The translations under genes were made by a program, and so were the position numbers. Below are positions 193-56,255 of a DNA stretch of 64,000 nucleotides, piece after piece (within the stretch, counting starts at the first letter, position 1; each line of letters opens with the position of its first letter). Source of the DNA: Saksenaea vasiformis B4078 (lineage: Eukaryota; Mucoromycota; Mucoromycetes; Mucorales; Saksenaeaceae). A model generated the notes under the pieces. It had not been told where the DNA came from and searched no databases. It saw only the letters and a program-made list of their open reading frames with translations. The stretch is taken from assembly GCA_000697055.1 (NCBI GenBank), contig JNDT01002032.1, forward strand, positions 31,177-95,176, given 5' to 3'.

Positions 193-947
193 CTATATAA
201 TCATGAGTCGAAACTGTCAACTTTCATGGTTTTTTTTTGCTTTTTAGATTACATGAAATTCTCCACGACGTGTAGGTTCCTGAATTTGGCGCTCAGAATT
301 GTCTTTCATGTATTACAAGGACATACCTGTGCATCTTCCTTTGTATTATTATCAGTAAGTTTCAGTTTCTTAAAACCAAGAATAGCTGTTTGCTCCTCCT
401 TTCTCTTTTTGGCGTCTGCAGACGGTTTAAAGCATAGTCTAACAGACCCAGCGCGATTAGACTTGTTTCATAAAGGAATGCTTTCCCATTAGCGCATAAT
501 GGCTGTTCCATACTTTGTCTGGAAAAGTCCTTTTTTGCCTTCTTTTGGTGTTTCTACCATATCACCTGTGAAATAACGGTTGACCACGTTTATTGAAGAC
601 GAAAAGGAAAAGAAAAAAAAGAAACGAGACAGAATAAAATGACCGTCGCGTCCGAAATGTTGTTCAATTCAATCTTTTTTAAAGAACCGCTCCAAGCTTA
701 TTCTTGGCTGGCTGGCAGTATGCCTGGACCAATTTGAGCGAATGACAGCTCTAGAACAAAGTGCGGAGTACCCCCTACCCCAATCATCTCTTTAGAACAA
801 AGTGCGGACCTTCTCTGCTGGCGAATAAAATATGGTAAAACAATCGGTCCTTTTTTGGGACAAGCAAATGCTTTTGGTTCCTCATAGAAATAGCTTATAT
901 ATAGCGTCCACTTTTGACGCTAATCCATAATTTTGTTTCTAATTATA
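193..947. other. Intergenic region, no gene seen
   Basis: No convincing coding sequence on either strand; the open frame at 226-492 has an atypical composition. The right part looks like the promoter of the relic that starts at 948: a TATATATAG box near 895-903 and a 16-base direct repeat at 752-767 and 793-808. Confidence 0.5.
752..808. repeat. 16-base direct repeat in promoter
   Basis: The sequence TAGAACAAAGTGCGGA occurs twice, at 752-767 and 793-808, 41 bases start to start. It lies about 100 bases upstream of a TATATATAG box and 140-200 bases upstream of the ATG at 948. It could be a paired activator site of the former transposon gene or a simple local duplication. The repeat is seen directly; the regulatory role is inference. 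Confidence 0.55.
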
Positions 948-1760
948 ATGGATTACAGTCGAAGCCAGTCGTCTCAGCAAGATCCAACACCTTCGCCGTC
1001 AATATCTGGTCTCAAACTGTGTATGTATTGATGTTGAATTCTCGTGAAATATACATTAATGCTAAAAGTTAACAGACCACTCGTCTGATGAAGTCAATAG
1101 AATGGGATTAGCTTCCATGGAGGAAACGCAATCAATTCCAGAGGGACTCCCTCCAAGCGAAGACAATAGCAATGACGAGACGTCAGATGGATCGCTACAT
1201 GTTCAGTACCTGACCAGCCTGCGAGATAGACTAAAGCAAGAAATGGAACAATCACCAAAAAATATTCCCAAATGCTATCAGAATCAGAGTTATCGGGTGA
1301 CACCACCTAGTCCGTATTTTGCTCTCCGTGTCCGAAAAAGATTAGACCCTTCACCGCTTTACCATCCTCGCATGTTTGCGTGGCTAGTCCATCTGCTCAT
1401 CAAGGAGTTCAATGCTCTGGAAATTTTCACGTGTGTGGCTGGGCAGACAGACCAATTGCAAGAAAAGTTTTCGATATGCATGACAATTTCTATATCATGT
1501 TGTACAGATGTCAATGAAATTATCAAAGTTCCACCGTGCTCCTTATCAGAAGAGTTTCCTGCAATACTTTCTCAAGATGGAGCAGTATCTCGAGAATTGA
1601 TGAATACGATGCGTAGCTGCTTTCATTCCTGAATGGGACCTGGTCCATTTTCTCGAGCCATTGGCGAGCATCATCACCTGATATGATATACCTTGCTGCA
1701 TGTTTGGTACTGGATTTTCGAATGAGTATGTCATGCAGTACGCATCCCTTCATTTGGACC
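948..1760 (+). pseudogene. Degenerate transposon protein with DUF6729-like N-terminal module
   Basis: An ATG at 948 opens a short exon (948-1020), then a GTATGT...AACAG intron (1021-1075), then an open frame to 1632 that continues in phase. Family-like landmarks follow in order but in different frames: YHPRMFAWLVHLL, then GWADRPIARKVFDM..FYIMLYRC in another frame near 1440-1515, then a Leu/Pro segment ending SEEFPAILSQDGAVS, and after the stop a segment GPGPFSRAIGEHH in a third frame. The order (HPRxFxWLxHLL, Gly-Trp..Pro..Ala-Arg-Arg-Val, Cys pair, FP..L..G, GPGPF) matches the N-terminal half of large fungal transposon proteins carrying DUF6729-type domains. The frame changes and stop at 1630 mean it is broken. 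The catalytic part is absent. Family assignment is from memory and moderate. Confidence 0.55.
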
Positions 1761-2667
1761 TTGTACTACTCGACACGACATTTAGCTAACGTCGTTTCCC
1801 GCGTAATTCCAAACGGATTGTGACAGAAGAACAGCGGGGAGCCTGGATGGTGTTTCTAATATAGTAAGGATAGCAAATCGACATTTTCCTCGTTTGGAGA
1901 TAAAGACGATTACGGCGGCACATCTCGAAGTGCAAAATGTTTAAAGAATATATACAATGATTGCGTGGAATTGTGTTCGATGGACTATTATCTGCATACG
2001 AGTACATTGCCAGCTACAGTTCTCATCACAGCGAGCATAAGATAGCAAGTTATCTCTACTGTGTTTGACTACACGTAGCCTGTAGGTCACAAGGCATGTC
2101 TCTAAATTTCTCATCACTCATGTTTCTGATGGTCTTGGACTATGAAAAACGAATGCGCATAAATCCGGATTTATGGCTAGAAAAGAAACTGCCAGTCAAA
2201 TCATCATCTTTTATTATCGAGAAGGCAACAGCGCCCGTTTAGCATCAGTTAGTATAGATATAATACTTAGATAGAGCTGGAAAAGACAGCAGTTTTTATT
2301 TTGAATAAATCTCTGTAAACGGTCTTAAAGAATTTCTGTCTGTTTTCTCTGCTACTAATTTCATGTAAAAGTTAGTTCGCGCATGAAGAGACGTGCTGAA
2401 GACGTCTGACTTGAATAAAACGTGCCATAAACATGTCTCATCCATGGTGTGATAGATTGAACATCCACAGTATGATAGATCCTTTTTCTTAGGAACTACA
2501 AGCTATGGCTCCAAAAGGTGCGGGTCGGATTAGATATTGTTTGTAAGAGATCTGGTGATCTGGTGATAGATCAACAACAGTGATTTCTTTGTATAGTGAA
2601 CTATAAGATAGGAACGACCACCACATTTTAGTCCTCATTTTCTTATTTTGTCGTTTTTGCCTTTATC
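1761..2667. other. Upstream region of the Fanzor gene, no gene seen
   Basis: About 900 bases between the transposase relic and the Fanzor start. I see no coding sequence that continues for more than about 70 codons with a natural composition. No terminal inverted repeat pairing this flank with the 3' side of the Fanzor gene was recognised by eye. A local duplication GATCTGGT-GATCTGGT lies near 2550-2566. A pyrimidine-rich stretch (2632-2660) directly precedes the ATG at 2668, as in other promoters of this window. Confidence 0.4.
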
Positions 2668-5600
2668 ATGGAGGAGGTTCAGGGACCACCTCGCCGTCGG
2701 AGACGATATGGATATCAGCACAGTCCTCTATCCGACCTCCCTGGTCGTGATTATTCGTTTGTGCGAAAACTAAAACTGTCCAGCTTTCTGAGAGAGGACT
2801 ATAAGCACCTAAGGGTATATGTGTATTCCGACTTTCTCTGGACAAAAGCTAAGTCCGTTGATATAGGTTGCTTTTCGGGCACTTGCGGAAGAATACGCCG
2901 CTGCTTGCCAGTGTGCGATGTTTCTTGTCAATCTCCACATTCGTCGTTGGCTTGAAGGCCAAATAGAACTTTTCCCTCCGATTTCGAAGGAATATTTCTT
3001 CACTGCTGCTTTCAAGATGGTATTGCGACGAGAACCCCACGCTAATATCAGAGTAGCTTTTGTATGATGTTGCTATAATTGTGCAATCAGCTGACTAATT
3101 TCTTTGTCTTCTGTATACTTTATAGTCCCCCTACCGATGGTGCGTTGACCTAAGAGAAACTTTTGAGACCGTGTTTGATTTGTGCAGATTCAATCCACAA
3201 GCATCAGAAGGTGCATAAAAGAACTTAACAATTTTAAGAATATTCATACATTATTAGAAAACTATTCTCTCCCGAGACTGACCCACGTCTTAAGAGACCT
3301 GGCTCCTTCGTTTGCAGGGAAAATAACTGCCAGTGAGCACTTAATATCAAAGGGGCAAAAAGGCAGTTGTATATTTACGTTTTTTGCCTTCGTAGACACC
3401 TTTGAACATGTCACGACAAATCTCCCAGTCTATATGAGAAGAACATTTAAAGCATTCTTTCTTCGCCTTTTCGAACAGTATCCTCAAACCCAATACCACA
3501 ATGTGAATGGCCTAGGTATTATATTTTATTCATTTCCTCTACAGTAGCTAATGTGATATTTGTAATTCTAGCATCTCGCTGCACGAACGCAGTCTTGGCA
3601 CAGAACAATTTCGACCATAACGCATGGCCAGCGTTTGGTACTGATGCGGTTGCAGAGTTCGAAGCATTCTATACGTAGGTTTTATATGATTGTTAACCAT
3701 TTCGCGATTGTCTATCACTAACTGCTCCATGTTTTATAGGGAGTTTCTATGGACTTACACGGAAACGTTTGGAAACACGGACATTTCAGGCGATTTAAGC
3801 GATGAGCAGAAGGAAAGTTTACTTCCCTCCATGCTACAATTTTCTTTCCAGATGCTTAAACAATCGAACGAGTACGATGGAGAAGGGTGGTCGCTATTAC
3901 CATTAGCGAAGAATCAAATAGGCATGATTGAATGAGCGAAAGCCTCTACTTAGGTATTATGGTCTAACATGCACGCTATAGGATATGTGCCGGTTCCCCA
4001 CCCCATCCTATATTGGATTTTACAAGGTGTTGCTGTGGACCTCCCGGATCACCTCTTCGTAAGTGGTCTACAAGAAAAGTGAATGAAAACTAACTGGCCA
4101 TCCAAAAGCCTCCGTTACATAATCCTCGTACTTTTTCCAGTGCCCATCGGAGCGCAGTTTACCGTGAGCAGCTTTGGGAAGAGATTTTCTGTATAGACCG
4201 TGTCATGCCTAGGCGTTGGCGTTCGCAAGGTTTGCTTATAATTGATCACATGTAAATGCTGATTTCATCGCTCTTTGCTTAGGAGAAAACAACGAACAGC
4301 TTCCGCAAATCGAATTTGACTACGGTTTCGAAACAGACGGTGTGATGGCAGCCATCAGGTTCAAGTCTCGCAAGCCCAATCGAGGTATGGCTAATGTTTG
4401 CCACATTATGAAGCAACTAATGGGATATCTGCGTCTCAGCTTCTTACCCTTCATCCAGAAGAGACTTCCAATTCTTGCCCCGAAATAGAGACATGTCTAT
4501 TATCCAACGTGGTTTATACCACTTAAACAAGGAACCCACAGGTTTCACTGCAGCACAAAACCTAGACCCCGGATTGACCCGCATAGTGGGGATTGACCCA
4601 GGTATGTCACCCGCTTTGAAAAAAATTCAGTGATAGCTATATATTATATAGGCATCCGATCCCTGGTAACTTCTGTTGACACGGCGGATAACTTACGTGA
4701 TCGGGAAACAAGGCAGCACCATACGTTTACGGTCACCAATGATTATTACCAGTAATATAACAGGATGATGTTGGCCATGGTGTGATAACCATATCAATTT
4801 CCAGGAACTGCTCCAAGTTCACCTGGAGTCTTCAAATGGAGCGGAAGAATCGCTTAGCAGCGAATATGCAACAGGTGTATGATCGTCTGGCGGAGCACCC
4901 AAGCACGCAGGCATCGGTTTTAGGGTTTCAGAGCTATCTTTCGACGCAATTTGCCGAGAAGAATAGGTACTTTCTGGATATACACCGCTTGTATGTGTCC
5001 GTTCTAAAAGGATTTTGCTAGGACTGAGGAATACAATCGTCACTATCGTCATAGAGAAAGACGTGGGCTCCTGGAGTCTGCGAGAAAAATGACAATGGAC
5101 GTTATTGCGGATCAAGCTGCAGGCTTCTATCCTAATACAACTTTGGTAAGCCCACCAATGCATCATACGAGTACATTGATCGTTATGCGAATAGCCACCT
5201 ATCCAACATGTACACAAAGAGAACAAGAGGCAACGAAAACGAAGACGCCAGCAGCACCGGCGAAATCAGGGAGGCGGCCAACGGGACCAGCGCCAGGTTC
5301 TAATCGCTTACGGTGACGCGGACCTACATACCGGCACGTATACGACGTATGGTCCTCTGCCGGTCAAGGCAAATATTTTTGATCCATGTTGATATTGAAT
5401 TTTTAATTGCTGTTCTATGTAGACGTTTCGCAAAGTCTTGGCTCGGCGATGCCCACTGATATGTGTAGATGAGTATAAGACCAGCAGGGTCTGTAGCGTC
5501 TGTCATAACGATACTATCCAACTGCGTGATCCTAACCTACGCATTTGCAACCACAAGTATGTATAATATGCAACCAAACGCGACCAAAGGCTAAACATTA

Positions 5601-6022
5601 GAAATCGTTCATTAGAAAAAAGTACCTAAGCAAGCGCCCGAACAAACGAAAGCGGCAATACTGTCTCAATGAAAACGATGAAGTATTGCACGCTACATGC
5701 GAATGCCCTGACAGGCGTCAACTAGGTAGAGTCTTGGTACATTGTCTCTGACTAACCACCTTAATAGCTCCAACCGATTTCCGGAACATTGTCTATCCCA
5801 TTCGGCTGTGTCCCCAGTGCGTGTATGATAGGCAAGGAGAGATGACACCTTTGGTAAGTAATATGATTAGTAGGATATACTACCTCTCTAACATTACATT
5901 AGTTTTGGAATAGAGACGTTAATGCCGGCCGTAACATGCGTGAGATACTTGTCCGTTACATTGAATCCGGATGCCAGTTAACGTCTCGTCCCGAAGCGCT
6001 GTCTCGGACAGCTCAGCAGTGA
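2668..6022 (+). CDS. Fanzor (eukaryotic TnpB-type RNA-guided endonuclease), 19 exons, apparently intact
   Basis: Exons: 2668-2814, 2867-3061, 3126-3210, 3258-3332, 3396-3515, 3572-3674, 3740-3921, 3982-4078, 4141-4229, 4283-4384, 4440-4601, 4652-4751, 4805-4966, 5022-5145, 5297-5368, 5423-5556, 5616-5725, 5768-5853, 5903-6022. The sum is 2265 bases, 754 residues, with no internal stop. The C-terminal half is a RuvC nuclease: RuvC-I VGIDPG with Asp451, then LVTSVD; RuvC-II VDEYKTSRVCSVC with Glu622; a Cys finger (C629, C632, C701, C704); RuvC-III WNRDVNAGRNM with Asp720. Ahead of RuvC-I is the Fanzor-typical FDYGFETDGV (about 380-390). Known Fanzors are guided by a noncoding RNA transcribed from the gene's 3' flank and cut DNA. 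Two introns use GC donors (3922, 5369). The intron 5146-5296 is the longest and could instead be partly coding. Family call is firm; activity is inference. Confidence 0.9.
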
Positions 6023-6184
6023 GGCACTGCTATCTGGTCACTCGTTTGACAAGTAAGTATTGGAACTAGGTCTTACGAGTCACGCTTTGGAACCACGTGT
6101 TAATGAAAATTAGGGCTATCCAGACACCGTCTGTGAGCCTTATTCTTCTTTTTATCTGATTGGGCGGTCGTAATATTGTTGTTT
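6023..6184 (+). ncRNA. Candidate guide-RNA (fRNA) region downstream of Fanzor, with hairpin at 6037-6083
   Basis: In known Fanzor and TnpB systems the guide RNA comes from the region overlapping or just after the nuclease stop codon. Here that flank is only 162 bases before the next reading frame. It contains a possible stem pairing GTCACTCGT (6037-6045) with ACGAGTCAC (6075-6083), eight of nine pairs matching. No transposon end was recognised to fix the guide boundary. The location argument is established knowledge; the RNA itself is inference. Confidence 0.3.
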
Positions 6185-7786: not shown

Positions 7787-10700
7787 TTATTTAACAAATC
7801 GCGATAAGCTGTCTACTGAGTTTACTAATGTCATGGTTTCACTTAATTCAAGAGCATACATAAAGCATTCTTTTGCTTGTTCTATTCTTTCCACATGCTT
7901 ATTGACCATCCCAAGCCAGTACCATGCATCTGAATGATTCCATCCTGGGCCTTTTGTAGTGCGATCCAGTAGACCTTCGGCAAGATCCCATTCTTCTAGC
8001 TCAATATACATAGTTGCCATGTTTAGATGTGTCGCAACATGATCAGGATCGATGGTGAGGGCCTTGTTAAAGGCTTCAAGAGCAACCTTCCGTAATTCTG
8101 GATGAGGATCCACTTGATCTGCTTTCAGGCACAGTACACCAAGAACGTGCCACACATCCGGATCATCAGGACCTAGCTCTTCCGCTTCCAAAATGGCCTT
8201 GCTAGCCTCTTCCAGTCGTCCTGCCTGGATATAGCTGTTTGTACACATCAGCCATAATTTGACCAACAACTGATGCCACTGATGACGCTGGCTCCTCATG
8301 AATGCGTTCTCTTTAAACACAGATGGTAAAGGGAAACTGGGGCCACTGAAGCTATTGCTCCGCAATGTACTCATGGATCGTGTCAGCACCGAAGCCAATG
8401 AAAATGAAGACGTCCCTTGAAGAACGAACGGTCAGTTCAAACGCTTCATCCCTAACTTAATCCTTACTTGGCTTTCCGTGATGATCAGTGCTTGCAGTAG
8501 TGGTGGTGGTAGTAGTGCTAGGCGAGAGATGACTATGGATGGCATTGCTATTATTGCTACTACTGGCGCTGTTGTTGCTCGCGTTACTGCCACTGTTACT
8601 GTTGCTGCCTATCCGCTTTGCCAATCCTAGATCAATAAGCTGCAAACTTTTCTTTCTAAAAGATCGGCTAGAAGTAACGCTTGTTGCCGCACTGTCCGTG
8701 TCCATAGGGTTGCTTCGGGCAGTTTCACTGTTACTTGGTTTTGGCGACCTCTCCTCTTCATCATCGTCTGTGGTACGACCTGGTATACCATTTGTACTAG
8801 TGCTACTGTTGCGGCGTCTTTCATGCATGGTGAAGGAGAGAGAACGTCTGCTACGCGAAGTCTTTGCGACAGCAATGGGTGCAGGGGTCAAATCAACGGG
8901 TTTGCCATTGATGCCAAGTTGCTGTGTTAAATGGGCATACATATGGAATAGCTCCTCATAAAGTGTCAGTACGGATTCTGATCCTTCGATCAGCTCCAGT
9001 ATCCGAACTTGTGACATCCGCGCAGTAATGTAGGCATGTGCTCGATCAAAGTGCTTTGCAGCATCGTCTTCACCCGTCCAGGATAAGAAAGGGGTCCCAG
9101 GATGCAGCTGTGTCGGGAGATCAATCTGAGCATCTTTTAATCCTGTTTGAATGATCTGCAGGGCCTGGGGAAGCTTGTTGTAACGCCTACATGCATACAA
9201 AAGCGCAAGCAAATGCCACGAAGATAAATGGTACTTATTTAATTCAATGGAACGAACGATGGATGCACATGCAGCCGTGATATCTCTGACATGGAACTGT
9301 TGCACCGCAAGCTCGTAGTACGTCTGCCATGATTGATCCTCTAGTGCCAATGATTTTTGGAAAGAAGTGATGGACTCCACATGATGACTTGATCGGAGCT
9401 CCGGATTATTGGCTTGCAAAAAAAAACAAGTTAAGCACCGCATACAGCTATCCCTTTTTCACCCTTACCTTGCGCTGCAAGCAAACCAAAGGCTACGCCA
9501 CGAGCGCGATAACACGTAGCTACTAGCGGTGCTACTGCTCTTTCTTTTGCTAGACCTGCAGCCAGATCGGCAACAGTGGCAGCCATAGGCCCGTCTGATT
9601 CACGTTGGTACAACTCCACGGCAGCCAACAAGAGTTTAACGATAACCTCTATCTCTTCGTCTGCTTTTCGTTGGAGCACCTTTTCGACATGACTTTCCAT
9701 ATCCTCCAAAGTCATCGTCATCTCATGAAGTTTGTCCACATCAGACAGACCAATGAGTTCTAAATATGTCCGCAGAGAATACTTGGCTTCCTCAAAGTTG
9801 CCCAAACGTAACAGAGTAAAGAACATGTGACGTGAGATACAAGGGCTGTTGAACGTCCTTTCTTTGGCACGGTATAGAAACTAGTTCCTCCGTTGAATTA
9901 TATTTAGAAATAAAAAGATGAATTTTTTTTATTTTATTTTTTACCTGAAGTACACGACGGACATGACTGATCTCACCCCAACCAATGGTGTCGTGTGCAT
10001 CAACCATTAGATTGGCCAATTCGATAACACGTTCGTTCTGTTGTTTAGCACTCAGGGTAGGGATGAGTGCTGACAACAGTTGTTGAAATAAGTTAAGTAG
10101 ACAATCCAGTTCTTCAAGAGCGGAAGGACGTTGCAATGCTCTAAAAAAAATTCGGATTGGTTATCCATCCCTATTTTCATAGGATTTGTTTATGTTTACC
10201 TGTCTGTCGCAGGAGCATAGGCATTTCTTTGGCAGATCTGGATCAGGTATTTTCCGTAATGACGAAAAACAACCCAGCGTCTGTGCATACGCCAATCAGG
10301 TGACCATAACGATGCAAGTTGCGTATACGCACGCGCCATCTTTAATGTTTGTTGCTGCTTACTACTTGCCAATGTAAATTCAGAATTCAACGACCGACTT
10401 TCCTACCTTGTTTGTACAGACAGTAGGACACCACGAAACAGACACTCTTCAATCCAGGAGGACAAGGCTTCACCTCTTTCAGAAGCATTTTGAACAACAT
10501 CCCATGCACTTTCGTATGTTTCTGTGGCCATGGCTTTTTCCTCCTCCATCTCAAAGCAGATGCCTTTTTCAAACAGGCGTGTGAGTTACCATGTGGCCTT
10601 TTTTTTTTATAGTGTCACTTCTCACCCTTTATGACTCGTGCCTGAACCAACAGGACAAGGCCATAACCGTCGGTCACATCTTCTGCACGTAACACAAGGT

Positions 10701-55653: not shown

Positions 55654-56255
55654 GCGCAACGTTCATTTCCACATGCAACCGTACATTGATTCATAATACA
55701 GCATTTGTTTACTTTTCTTTGTTTCCAGGAAATAGTTTATTGTGTTTATCAAAATCCTTTGTCATTTATCATAACAAGTATATAGCCTACGCTTCGGAAT
55801 CCCACAAAGAAAAACCAGTGACATGTCTTGGGTTACCATTATCACCTACCTCGGCTGCTTGAATGTGTTGCATGGGTTTATCCTGCAATTTTCGCTTCTT
55901 CGAAATGCAGGTGGTCGTTCATCACAGTGAATTTCCTGATAATAGGCCACCTTCCTAATGTTTCTACTGACGTTACAATCTCGATTCCATACGGTACTAC
56001 ATTTGCTGCATCTGAGTACCGCGTGTAGTGATTGCTTCAGCGCTCCTTTGACGTTGGTCCGCTTGCTTGAACCACACTCTGAGCAGATGTTGACGTTTTG
56101 TATTCATCTATGTCGACAACTACGCAAAGACCAGAGCGCTCCTCTCCTTGAGTTTTCGGTACCCTTCATAGAATTCGTATACATTGCATTACCGAAGGGG
56201 AGAAGTGGGATTTTCTTGCTGCTCGCCGGGTCGGTTTTCCTCCATTTGGCGCCGC

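What the first reader, a model, noticed from the sequence alone, without database searches (positions are those of the whole stretch)
2668..6022. Complete-looking, 19-exon Fanzor RNA-guided nuclease gene
Hand splicing gives one frame of 754 residues with RuvC-I Asp451 (GIDPG), RuvC-II Glu622 (VDEYKTSRVC), RuvC-III Asp720 (NRDVNAGRN) and a four-Cys finger. Eighteen introns have been gained or kept in a mobile-element-type gene, and no splice phase fails. That implies long residence and selection, possibly domestication or recent activity. Motifs are seen in the sequence; family function is established for Fanzor/TnpB; activity here is inference.
Basis: partly seen in the sequence, partly recalled or inferred. 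Interest (0 to 1): 0.95.

Follow-up and report, generated by a model that had tools for sequence, protein, structure and literature searches.

The report
Intron-rich Fanzor gene inside fungal transposon
This is a copy of a jumping gene in a fungus that carries a 19-exon gene for a CRISPR-like, RNA-guided DNA cutter together with its probable guide-RNA scaffold; it is a new, unusually complete example of a known kind rather than a tamed host gene.

Summary
The Fanzor gene is real. Comparison with 17 paralogues in the same genome gives 19 exons, 18 introns and 792 residues (not 754); D455, E660 and D758 sit in the published Fanzor fingerprints. It is not a domesticated single gene. It lies in a 5,434-bp DNA transposon (706-6139) with short inverted ends and a perfect 8-bp target duplication, together with a broken, truncated DUF6729 transposase relic. 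The introns are inherited with the element: four relatives at saturated synonymous divergence keep all 18. Purifying selection acted on the lineage (dN/dS 0.16 against the nearest, also open, copy), but this copy has lost the GT donor of intron 7.

Two things go beyond the finding. The last exon and 3' end encode three RNA stems, one spanning the stop codon; 7 of 16 pairs show compensatory change. This is the probable omega-RNA scaffold, ending at the transposon boundary. And the element inserts at a fixed distance from a host motif, TTnnnnnnCCG (11 of 12 copies). I read it as a non-autonomous Fanzor1 transposon, mobilised in trans, whose nuclease probably recuts empty sites. Activity, splicing and TAM are untested.

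The parts
679..689 (+). host target motif TTAAAGAACCG (TTnnnnnnCCG), CCG ending 16 bp before the element
   Evidence: same place in 11 of 12 A/C copies with a clean left end; background 0.0008 per position
698..705 (.). left target-site duplication TTATTCTT
   Evidence: 8 of 8 match with 6140-6147
706..6139 (+). DNA transposon copy, 5,434 bp, ends GGCT...AGCC
   Evidence: homology between copies stops here
749..808 (+). subterminal direct repeats CTCTAGAACAAAGTGCGGA (749-767, 790-808; 95% alike)
1267..2024 (+). broken, truncated relic of a DUF6729-type transposase gene
   Evidence: tblastn to the L049/L060 DUF6729 gene pieces, E 1e-25 and 4e-9; PF20499 61 bits in sibling L034, no Pfam hit for the window's own 188-aa frame
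2668..6022 (+). Fanzor1 gene, 19 exons: 2668-2814, 2867-3061, 3126-3210, 3258-3332, 3396-3515, 3572-3674, 3740-3921, 3982-4058, 4109-4229, 4283-4384, 4440-4601, 4652-4751, 4805-4966, 5022-5145, 5195-5368, 5423-5556, 5616-5725, 5768-5853, 5903-6022
   Evidence: comparative splice model, 792 aa
3922..3981 (+). intron 7 with GC donor (GT in the eight other A copies that keep the donor)
5369..5422 (+). intron 15 with GC donor, shared by the A copies that keep it
5998..6050 (+). three-stem RNA core; stem 2 spans the stop codon 6020-6022
   Evidence: 98.2% of cells paired, 7 of 16 pairs compensated in 14 sequences
6114..6139 (+). right-end hairpin, GGCTATCCAGACACCGTCTGTGAGCC
   Evidence: 13 places in the genome, 11 exact and 2 with one mismatch (limit 3), 0 in reversed control
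6140..6147 (.). right target-site duplication TTATTCTT; any guide would start at or after it

Best explanation
A non-autonomous cut-and-paste DNA transposon carries a Fanzor1 nuclease gene and its omega-RNA. Shown: the ends, the TSD, the multi-copy family, the intron-rich open gene with the Fanzor1 sequence fingerprints, the conserved three-stem structure that starts in the last exon and lies before the right end, the dead transposase relic, and related longer transposase genes elsewhere in the genome, one behind the same left end. Inferred: a DUF6729-type transposase acting in trans moves the element into sites a fixed 16 bp downstream of TTnnnnnnCCG; the spliced Fanzor binds the RNA made from its own 3' end, whose guide is the host DNA just right of the insertion; after excision, or on the empty sister or homologous chromosome, the complex cuts the vacant site so that repair copies the element back. 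Fanzor-less derivatives that keep the right end would use the same protein.
For: Element, ends and TSDs. Gene model and selection. Fanzor fingerprints DPG, E six residues before CxxC, TDG: against PMC10711439 (passages). RNA. Fanzor-less derivatives L052 and L055 with the same internal deletion (window 2877 joined to 5416) at two loci. Transposase relic and longer relatives. Target motif.
Against: No conserved letters lie directly upstream of the TSD in 7 sites, so a TAM adjacent to the guide, which homing needs, is not seen. L032 has no TSD match. The RNA stems vary little inside A-D (1 compensated pair of 19, reached by 444 of 500 shuffles); most compensation comes from family E, and one of the five measures on the 14-row set is ordinary (further pair types, 87 of 500 shuffles). 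Single-strand folding is not exceptional (z -1.9, -0.03, -0.7). Window PF07282 score 18.8 is below the 26.3 cut-off (first model, same C-terminal exons). No PDB match. The GC donor of intron 7 may cripple this copy.
Confidence: 0.8

Rival explanations
1. The family works as described, but this copy is freshly dead: the GT-to-GC donor of intron 7 causes retention of a stop and no full protein.
For: GT in the eight other A copies that keep the donor; donor TAG|GCATGA is far from the usual GC-donor consensus (consensus recalled, not from a call); 13 of 18 aligned copies carry frame-shifting indels or in-frame stops.
Against: GC-AG introns exist; intron 15 is GC in the A copies that keep it, also in L029 with its open frame. 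No frame lesion in the window.
Confidence: 0.35
2. The conserved right-end hairpins are DNA sites for the transposase, not a guide RNA.
For: They lie next to the transposon boundary; Fanzor-less derivatives keep them.
Against: The core starts inside the coding exon and spans the stop codon; G-U pairs occur; family E, with a different right-end sequence, keeps the three stems with other letters.
Confidence: 0.12
3. Domesticated host gene kept for a cellular role.
For: Open frame and dN/dS 0.16.
Against: Perfect TSD, multi-copy, selection shared with other mobile copies, introns inherited.
Confidence: 0.03

Closest known systems
Fanzor1 elements of Mucoromycota (ROr-4, PBl-3, MCi-4, MCi-2; Bao and Jurka 2013, PMC3627910, abstract and passages seen)
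   Same: Fanzor1 gene in a DNA transposon without an intact transposase, in related fungi
   Different: those have MuDR-like TIRs with 9-bp TSDs, or (MCi-2) no recognizable TIRs and 11-12-bp TSDs; here 8-bp TSDs, a DUF6729 relic, a TTnnnnnnCCG target motif and 18 introns (the most exons the passages mention is ten, in Chlamydomonas CRe-2 and CRe-3)
SpuFz1 / Spu-1 elements of Spizellomyces punctatus (Saito 2023, PMC10432273, passages and section 5 seen)
   Same: inverted-repeat element, RNA scaffold at the right end, many Fanzor-less ghost loci
   Different: Spu-1 is about 2.1 kb with a single ORF, 30-nt IRs and a CATA TAM; here the gene is split, the RNA core overlaps the stop codon and no TAM is seen
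SfAV Fanzor1 (PMC10711439, abstract and passages seen)
   Same: non-autonomous TIR/TSD element, three-stem reRNA that includes the TIR
   Different: compact (about 600 residues), short TSD, viral host

Membership tests
Fanzor | RuvC-I motif DPG | tested here: met
   GIDPG at 453-457; definition
Fanzor | alternative RuvC-II Glu six residues before the first CxxC | tested here: met
   E660-YKTSRV-CSVC; definition
Fanzor | zinc finger with RuvC-III Asp after it | tested here: met
   CSVC ... CPQC ... NRDVNAGRN
Fanzor | PF07282 above gathering score | tested here: not met
   window 18.8 of 26.3 (809-aa model); siblings L048 22.5, L045 26.4, just over. The finger has a long insert. PMC10711439 used this domain as a first search step, not as a definition
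Fanzor1 | TDG motif in the WED domain, long REC half, up to about 800 residues | tested here: met
   FETDGV, 792 aa; definition. That this TDG lies in a WED fold was not tested
Fanzor1 | encoded in a eukaryotic (not IS607) transposon | tested here: met
   short TIR and 8-bp TSD, DUF6729 relic
Fanzor1 | structural match to solved Fanzor | tested here: inconclusive
   P0001/P0002 model pLDDT 31.5, no fold search made; sequence searches of PDB empty
Fanzor omega-RNA | structured RNA at the right end, guide in the flank | tested here: inconclusive
   structure supported by covariation; transcription and guide not testable here
Fanzor | RNA-guided DNA cleavage with a TAM | not testable with these tools
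   no TAM-like letters next to the TSD in 7 sites
Domesticated transposon gene | single-copy, immobile, orthologous across species | tested here: not met
   multi-copy with TSDs; other species not tested

The most novel reading that the evidence does not exclude
The nuclease helps choose the insertion site: TTnnnnnnCCG, 16 bp from the left end, is read by the Fanzor-RNA complex as well as by the transposase, so that a eukaryotic cut-and-paste element inserts at a fixed distance from a TAM-like motif into a break its own Fanzor opens.
Probability: 0.06. Interest if true: 0.9.

Novelty: new variant of a known kind. Interest (0 to 1): 0.5.

Why it matters
What Fanzor does for its transposon is an open question (discussion passage of PMC10432273). 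This genome offers a family with open and broken genes, Fanzor-less derivatives, a defined RNA scaffold candidate, TSDs that mark the empty site exactly and a transposase candidate, so the homing idea becomes directly testable. It also shows that an intron-rich nuclease gene can spread as DNA with its introns, so introns alone do not argue for domestication. The target motif outside the TSD points to site-selective insertion.

Tried and rejected
First splice models were wrong: an automatic one (21 introns) and a hand one (17 introns, 809 aa); the dN/dS figures rest on the latter and are replaced. One search had an off-by-one in one intron and its counts are void. The searches used the 809-aa model, whose C-terminal exons are the same. 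Domestication: rejected (above). hAT: no TSD signature seen by eye in the TSDs (the signature is recalled, not from a call). Single-sequence folding does not support the RNA strongly; covariation does. A profile protein search found nothing. AlphaFold on P0001+P0002 failed (pLDDT 31.5), so no fold search was made. Other Fanzor families of the genome (L001-L008) do not show the three stems by eye. The left flanks of family E, which would separate transposase-led from Fanzor-led targeting, could not be fetched. Inverted 13-base words more than 1 kb apart in L060 (a full-length DUF6729 gene): none, so its ends are unknown. Papers: Jiang 2023 (Sci Adv, recalled) is not held; nothing from it is used.

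Full report
THE GENE. The stretch 2668-6022 was read directly and spliced by comparison. My first two models gave 21 and 17 introns. Aligning the window with 17 paralogous copies of the same genome showed an intron inside my exon 4 (3333-3395) and a better intron 8 (4059-4108). The corrected model has 19 exons, 18 introns and 792 residues with no stop. In four family-B/D copies (L040, L043, L045, L048) all 18 introns are GT-AG at the same places although synonymous sites are saturated against the window (pS 0.82-0.85) and introns mismatch at 49%. In the window two donors are GC: intron 15, which is GC in the A copies that keep it and in L037 but GT in the seven B/D copies, and intron 7, which is GT in the eight other A copies that keep the donor.

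IDENTITY. The protein has GIDPG, a glutamate six residues before the first CxxC (E660-YKTSRV-CSVC), NRDVNAGRN and TDG. DPG plus the displaced glutamate are called the molecular fingerprints of Fanzors, and TDG is named as characteristic of Fanzor1, in PMC10711439 (passages). The closest proteins found, among the 7,992 candidates scored, are P0001 from Fennellomyces sp. (34%, 84% covered) and P0002 from Rhizopus microsporus (27%, 78%), so the host is probably a mucoralean fungus (inference). Pfam PF07282 scores 18.8, under its cut-off of 26.3; sibling L045 just passes at 26.4, L048 does not at 22.5. No PDB chain matches by sequence, and structure prediction failed.

THE TRANSPOSON. Similarity between copies runs from about 704 to 6139, far beyond the gene, and breaks into unrelated flanks. 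The element is 706-6139, starts GGCT and ends AGCC, and is flanked by TTATTCTT on both sides. Of eight A/C copies with both ends in hand, six have perfect 8-bp duplications (window, L029, L033, L034, L036, L037), one has 7 of 8 (L031) and one none (L032). In L033 and L037 the left boundary was set by the duplication itself, because their left-end letters differ from the others. The 26-base right end occurs at 13 places in the genome, 11 exact and 2 with one mismatch (limit three), and at none in the reversed control. Of these 13, seven are Fanzor copies, most of them broken; L052 and L055 have lost the same middle part (window 2877 joined to 5416) and have different right flanks, so a Fanzor-less form has itself spread; L053 has another deletion, L054 is a relic, and L056 and L057 are cut by contig ends.

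GENE 1. Left of the Fanzor gene lies a broken frame (1267-2024) that matches the N-terminal part of DUF6729 genes. PF20499 scores 61 bits in sibling L034; the window's own 188-aa frame has no Pfam match. Longer genes of this kind elsewhere in the genome (C566 = L049/L060, and C493 = L050) continue into a region with VDHSHK and YTDN and, further on, a 3'-5' exonuclease domain (PF01612 45 bits, tested for C566 only). That these are DDE catalytic motifs is my reading, not a tool result. At C133 (L061, L082) the same left end (82%) precedes longer transposase pieces that reach the second motif; they then stop at what looks by eye like a Tc1-type insertion. No Fanzor gene follows in the 7.1 kb seen, only the last exon of a neighbouring B element before it. 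So the Fanzor element looks like a non-autonomous derivative of this transposon. No held paper mentions DUF6729, and none holds both Fanzor and Mucoromycota.

SELECTION AND AGE. Against nine other A copies dN/dS is 0.14-0.20; against the nearest, L029, it is 0.16 with dS 0.09 over 792 codons. Five of 18 aligned copies (window, L029, L045, L046, L048) have no frame-shifting indel or in-frame stop, and four of these have GT- or GC-AG at all introns; L046 has AT at one donor. The B/D copies start two codons upstream, with MD. Close pairs run higher (up to 0.45, L043/L044), as expected when copies decay after insertion. This is selection on a mobile lineage; it does not show that this copy works.

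THE RNA. The right ends of families A to D share far more sequence around the stop codon than introns do: the 30 bases after the stop are 74-84% identical between the window and L044, L048, L045, while 0 of 220 intronic 30-base windows reach that in each comparison; against the closer L037, 10 of 220 do. Synonymous difference is low in the last exon: 0.52 (window-L044, other exons 0.66-0.98) and 0.59 (L031-L048, other exons 0.54-1.05, one lower); in window-L037 it is 0.51 but four exons (1, 2, 3, 18) are lower still, so this sign alone is soft. A 15-base stop-codon hairpin pattern occurs at 67 places and at 0 in the reversed control. Family E (L074-L081; the C525 copy about 50% identical in protein over the last 300 residues) has another right end but keeps three stems, at the same spacing, with different letters. 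Of 43 right ends extracted, L033 and L054 were left out because deletions remove stems, and L065 because of an inserted base in stem 3; the other 40 give 14 distinct cores, all used. In these 98.2% of 224 cells pair and 7 of 16 pairs have changes on both sides; no shuffle of 500 reaches either value, nor the covariation score, while the count of further pair types is ordinary (87 of 500). Slid versions pair at most 45.6%. Within A-D alone the support was weak (1 compensated pair of 19), and most of the signal rests on one deep split, A-D against E. Single-sequence folds are unremarkable. Overlap of such RNAs with the stop codon is known for some Fanzors (legend).

TARGET MOTIF. In host DNA left of the element, TT at -27/-26 and CCG at -19 to -17 occur in 11 of 12 A/C copies with a clean left end, with A at -23 in 10 of these 11; the exception is C133, inserted beside a B element. 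L052 was left out because its left end is truncated. The pattern has a background rate of 0.0008 per position in the fetched DNA. In family B the pattern lies 9 instead of 8 bases before a TSD-like repeat (7 of 8 letters) in 3 of 4 copies tested; in the fourth, L039, neither the repeat nor the motif is clear. No motif is seen on the right in 14 flanks. Directly upstream of the TSD no letters are shared in 7 sites, so the motif is not placed like the TAM of TnpB elements. The simplest reading is target choice by the transposase.

VERDICT. A Fanzor1 gene in a non-autonomous 8-bp-TSD transposon with an omega-RNA-like 3' end: a new variant of a known kind. Homing by cutting empty sites is the likely function by analogy; it is inferred, not shown.

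Noticed in passing
window 55957-56088, minus strand: Second, broken Fanzor-like piece (PF07282 24.6 bits; DEYKTS-like motif by eye) in the same window.
   Followed up: partly
whole genome G000: 137 PF07282 matches in 38.7 Mb with 150 of 388 candidates scored, so Fanzor-type genes and pieces are very numerous here.
   Followed up: partly
L063, L064, L066, L076, L079: Five of 20 family-B and E stretches asked for were cut short by contig ends, as if near-identical copies broke the assembly.
   Followed up: no
L074-L081: Family E shares the stop-codon hairpin but its copies end alike at another sequence (..CACTGG, by eye): related Fanzors perhaps in another transposon type.
   Followed up: partly
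L061 (C133): An A-type element begins 6 bases after the right end of a B-type element, without the usual target motif.
   Followed up: partly
window 6185 onwards: An open frame whose first ATG lies 37 bases after the right TSD (no Pfam match), so the element may sit in a host promoter or 5' leader; a TPR gene lies at 7787-8398 minus.
   Followed up: partly
L049/L060 (C566), L050 (C493): DUF6729 transposase-like genes followed by a 3'-5' exonuclease domain (PF01612, 45 bits, tested for C566).
   Followed up: partly
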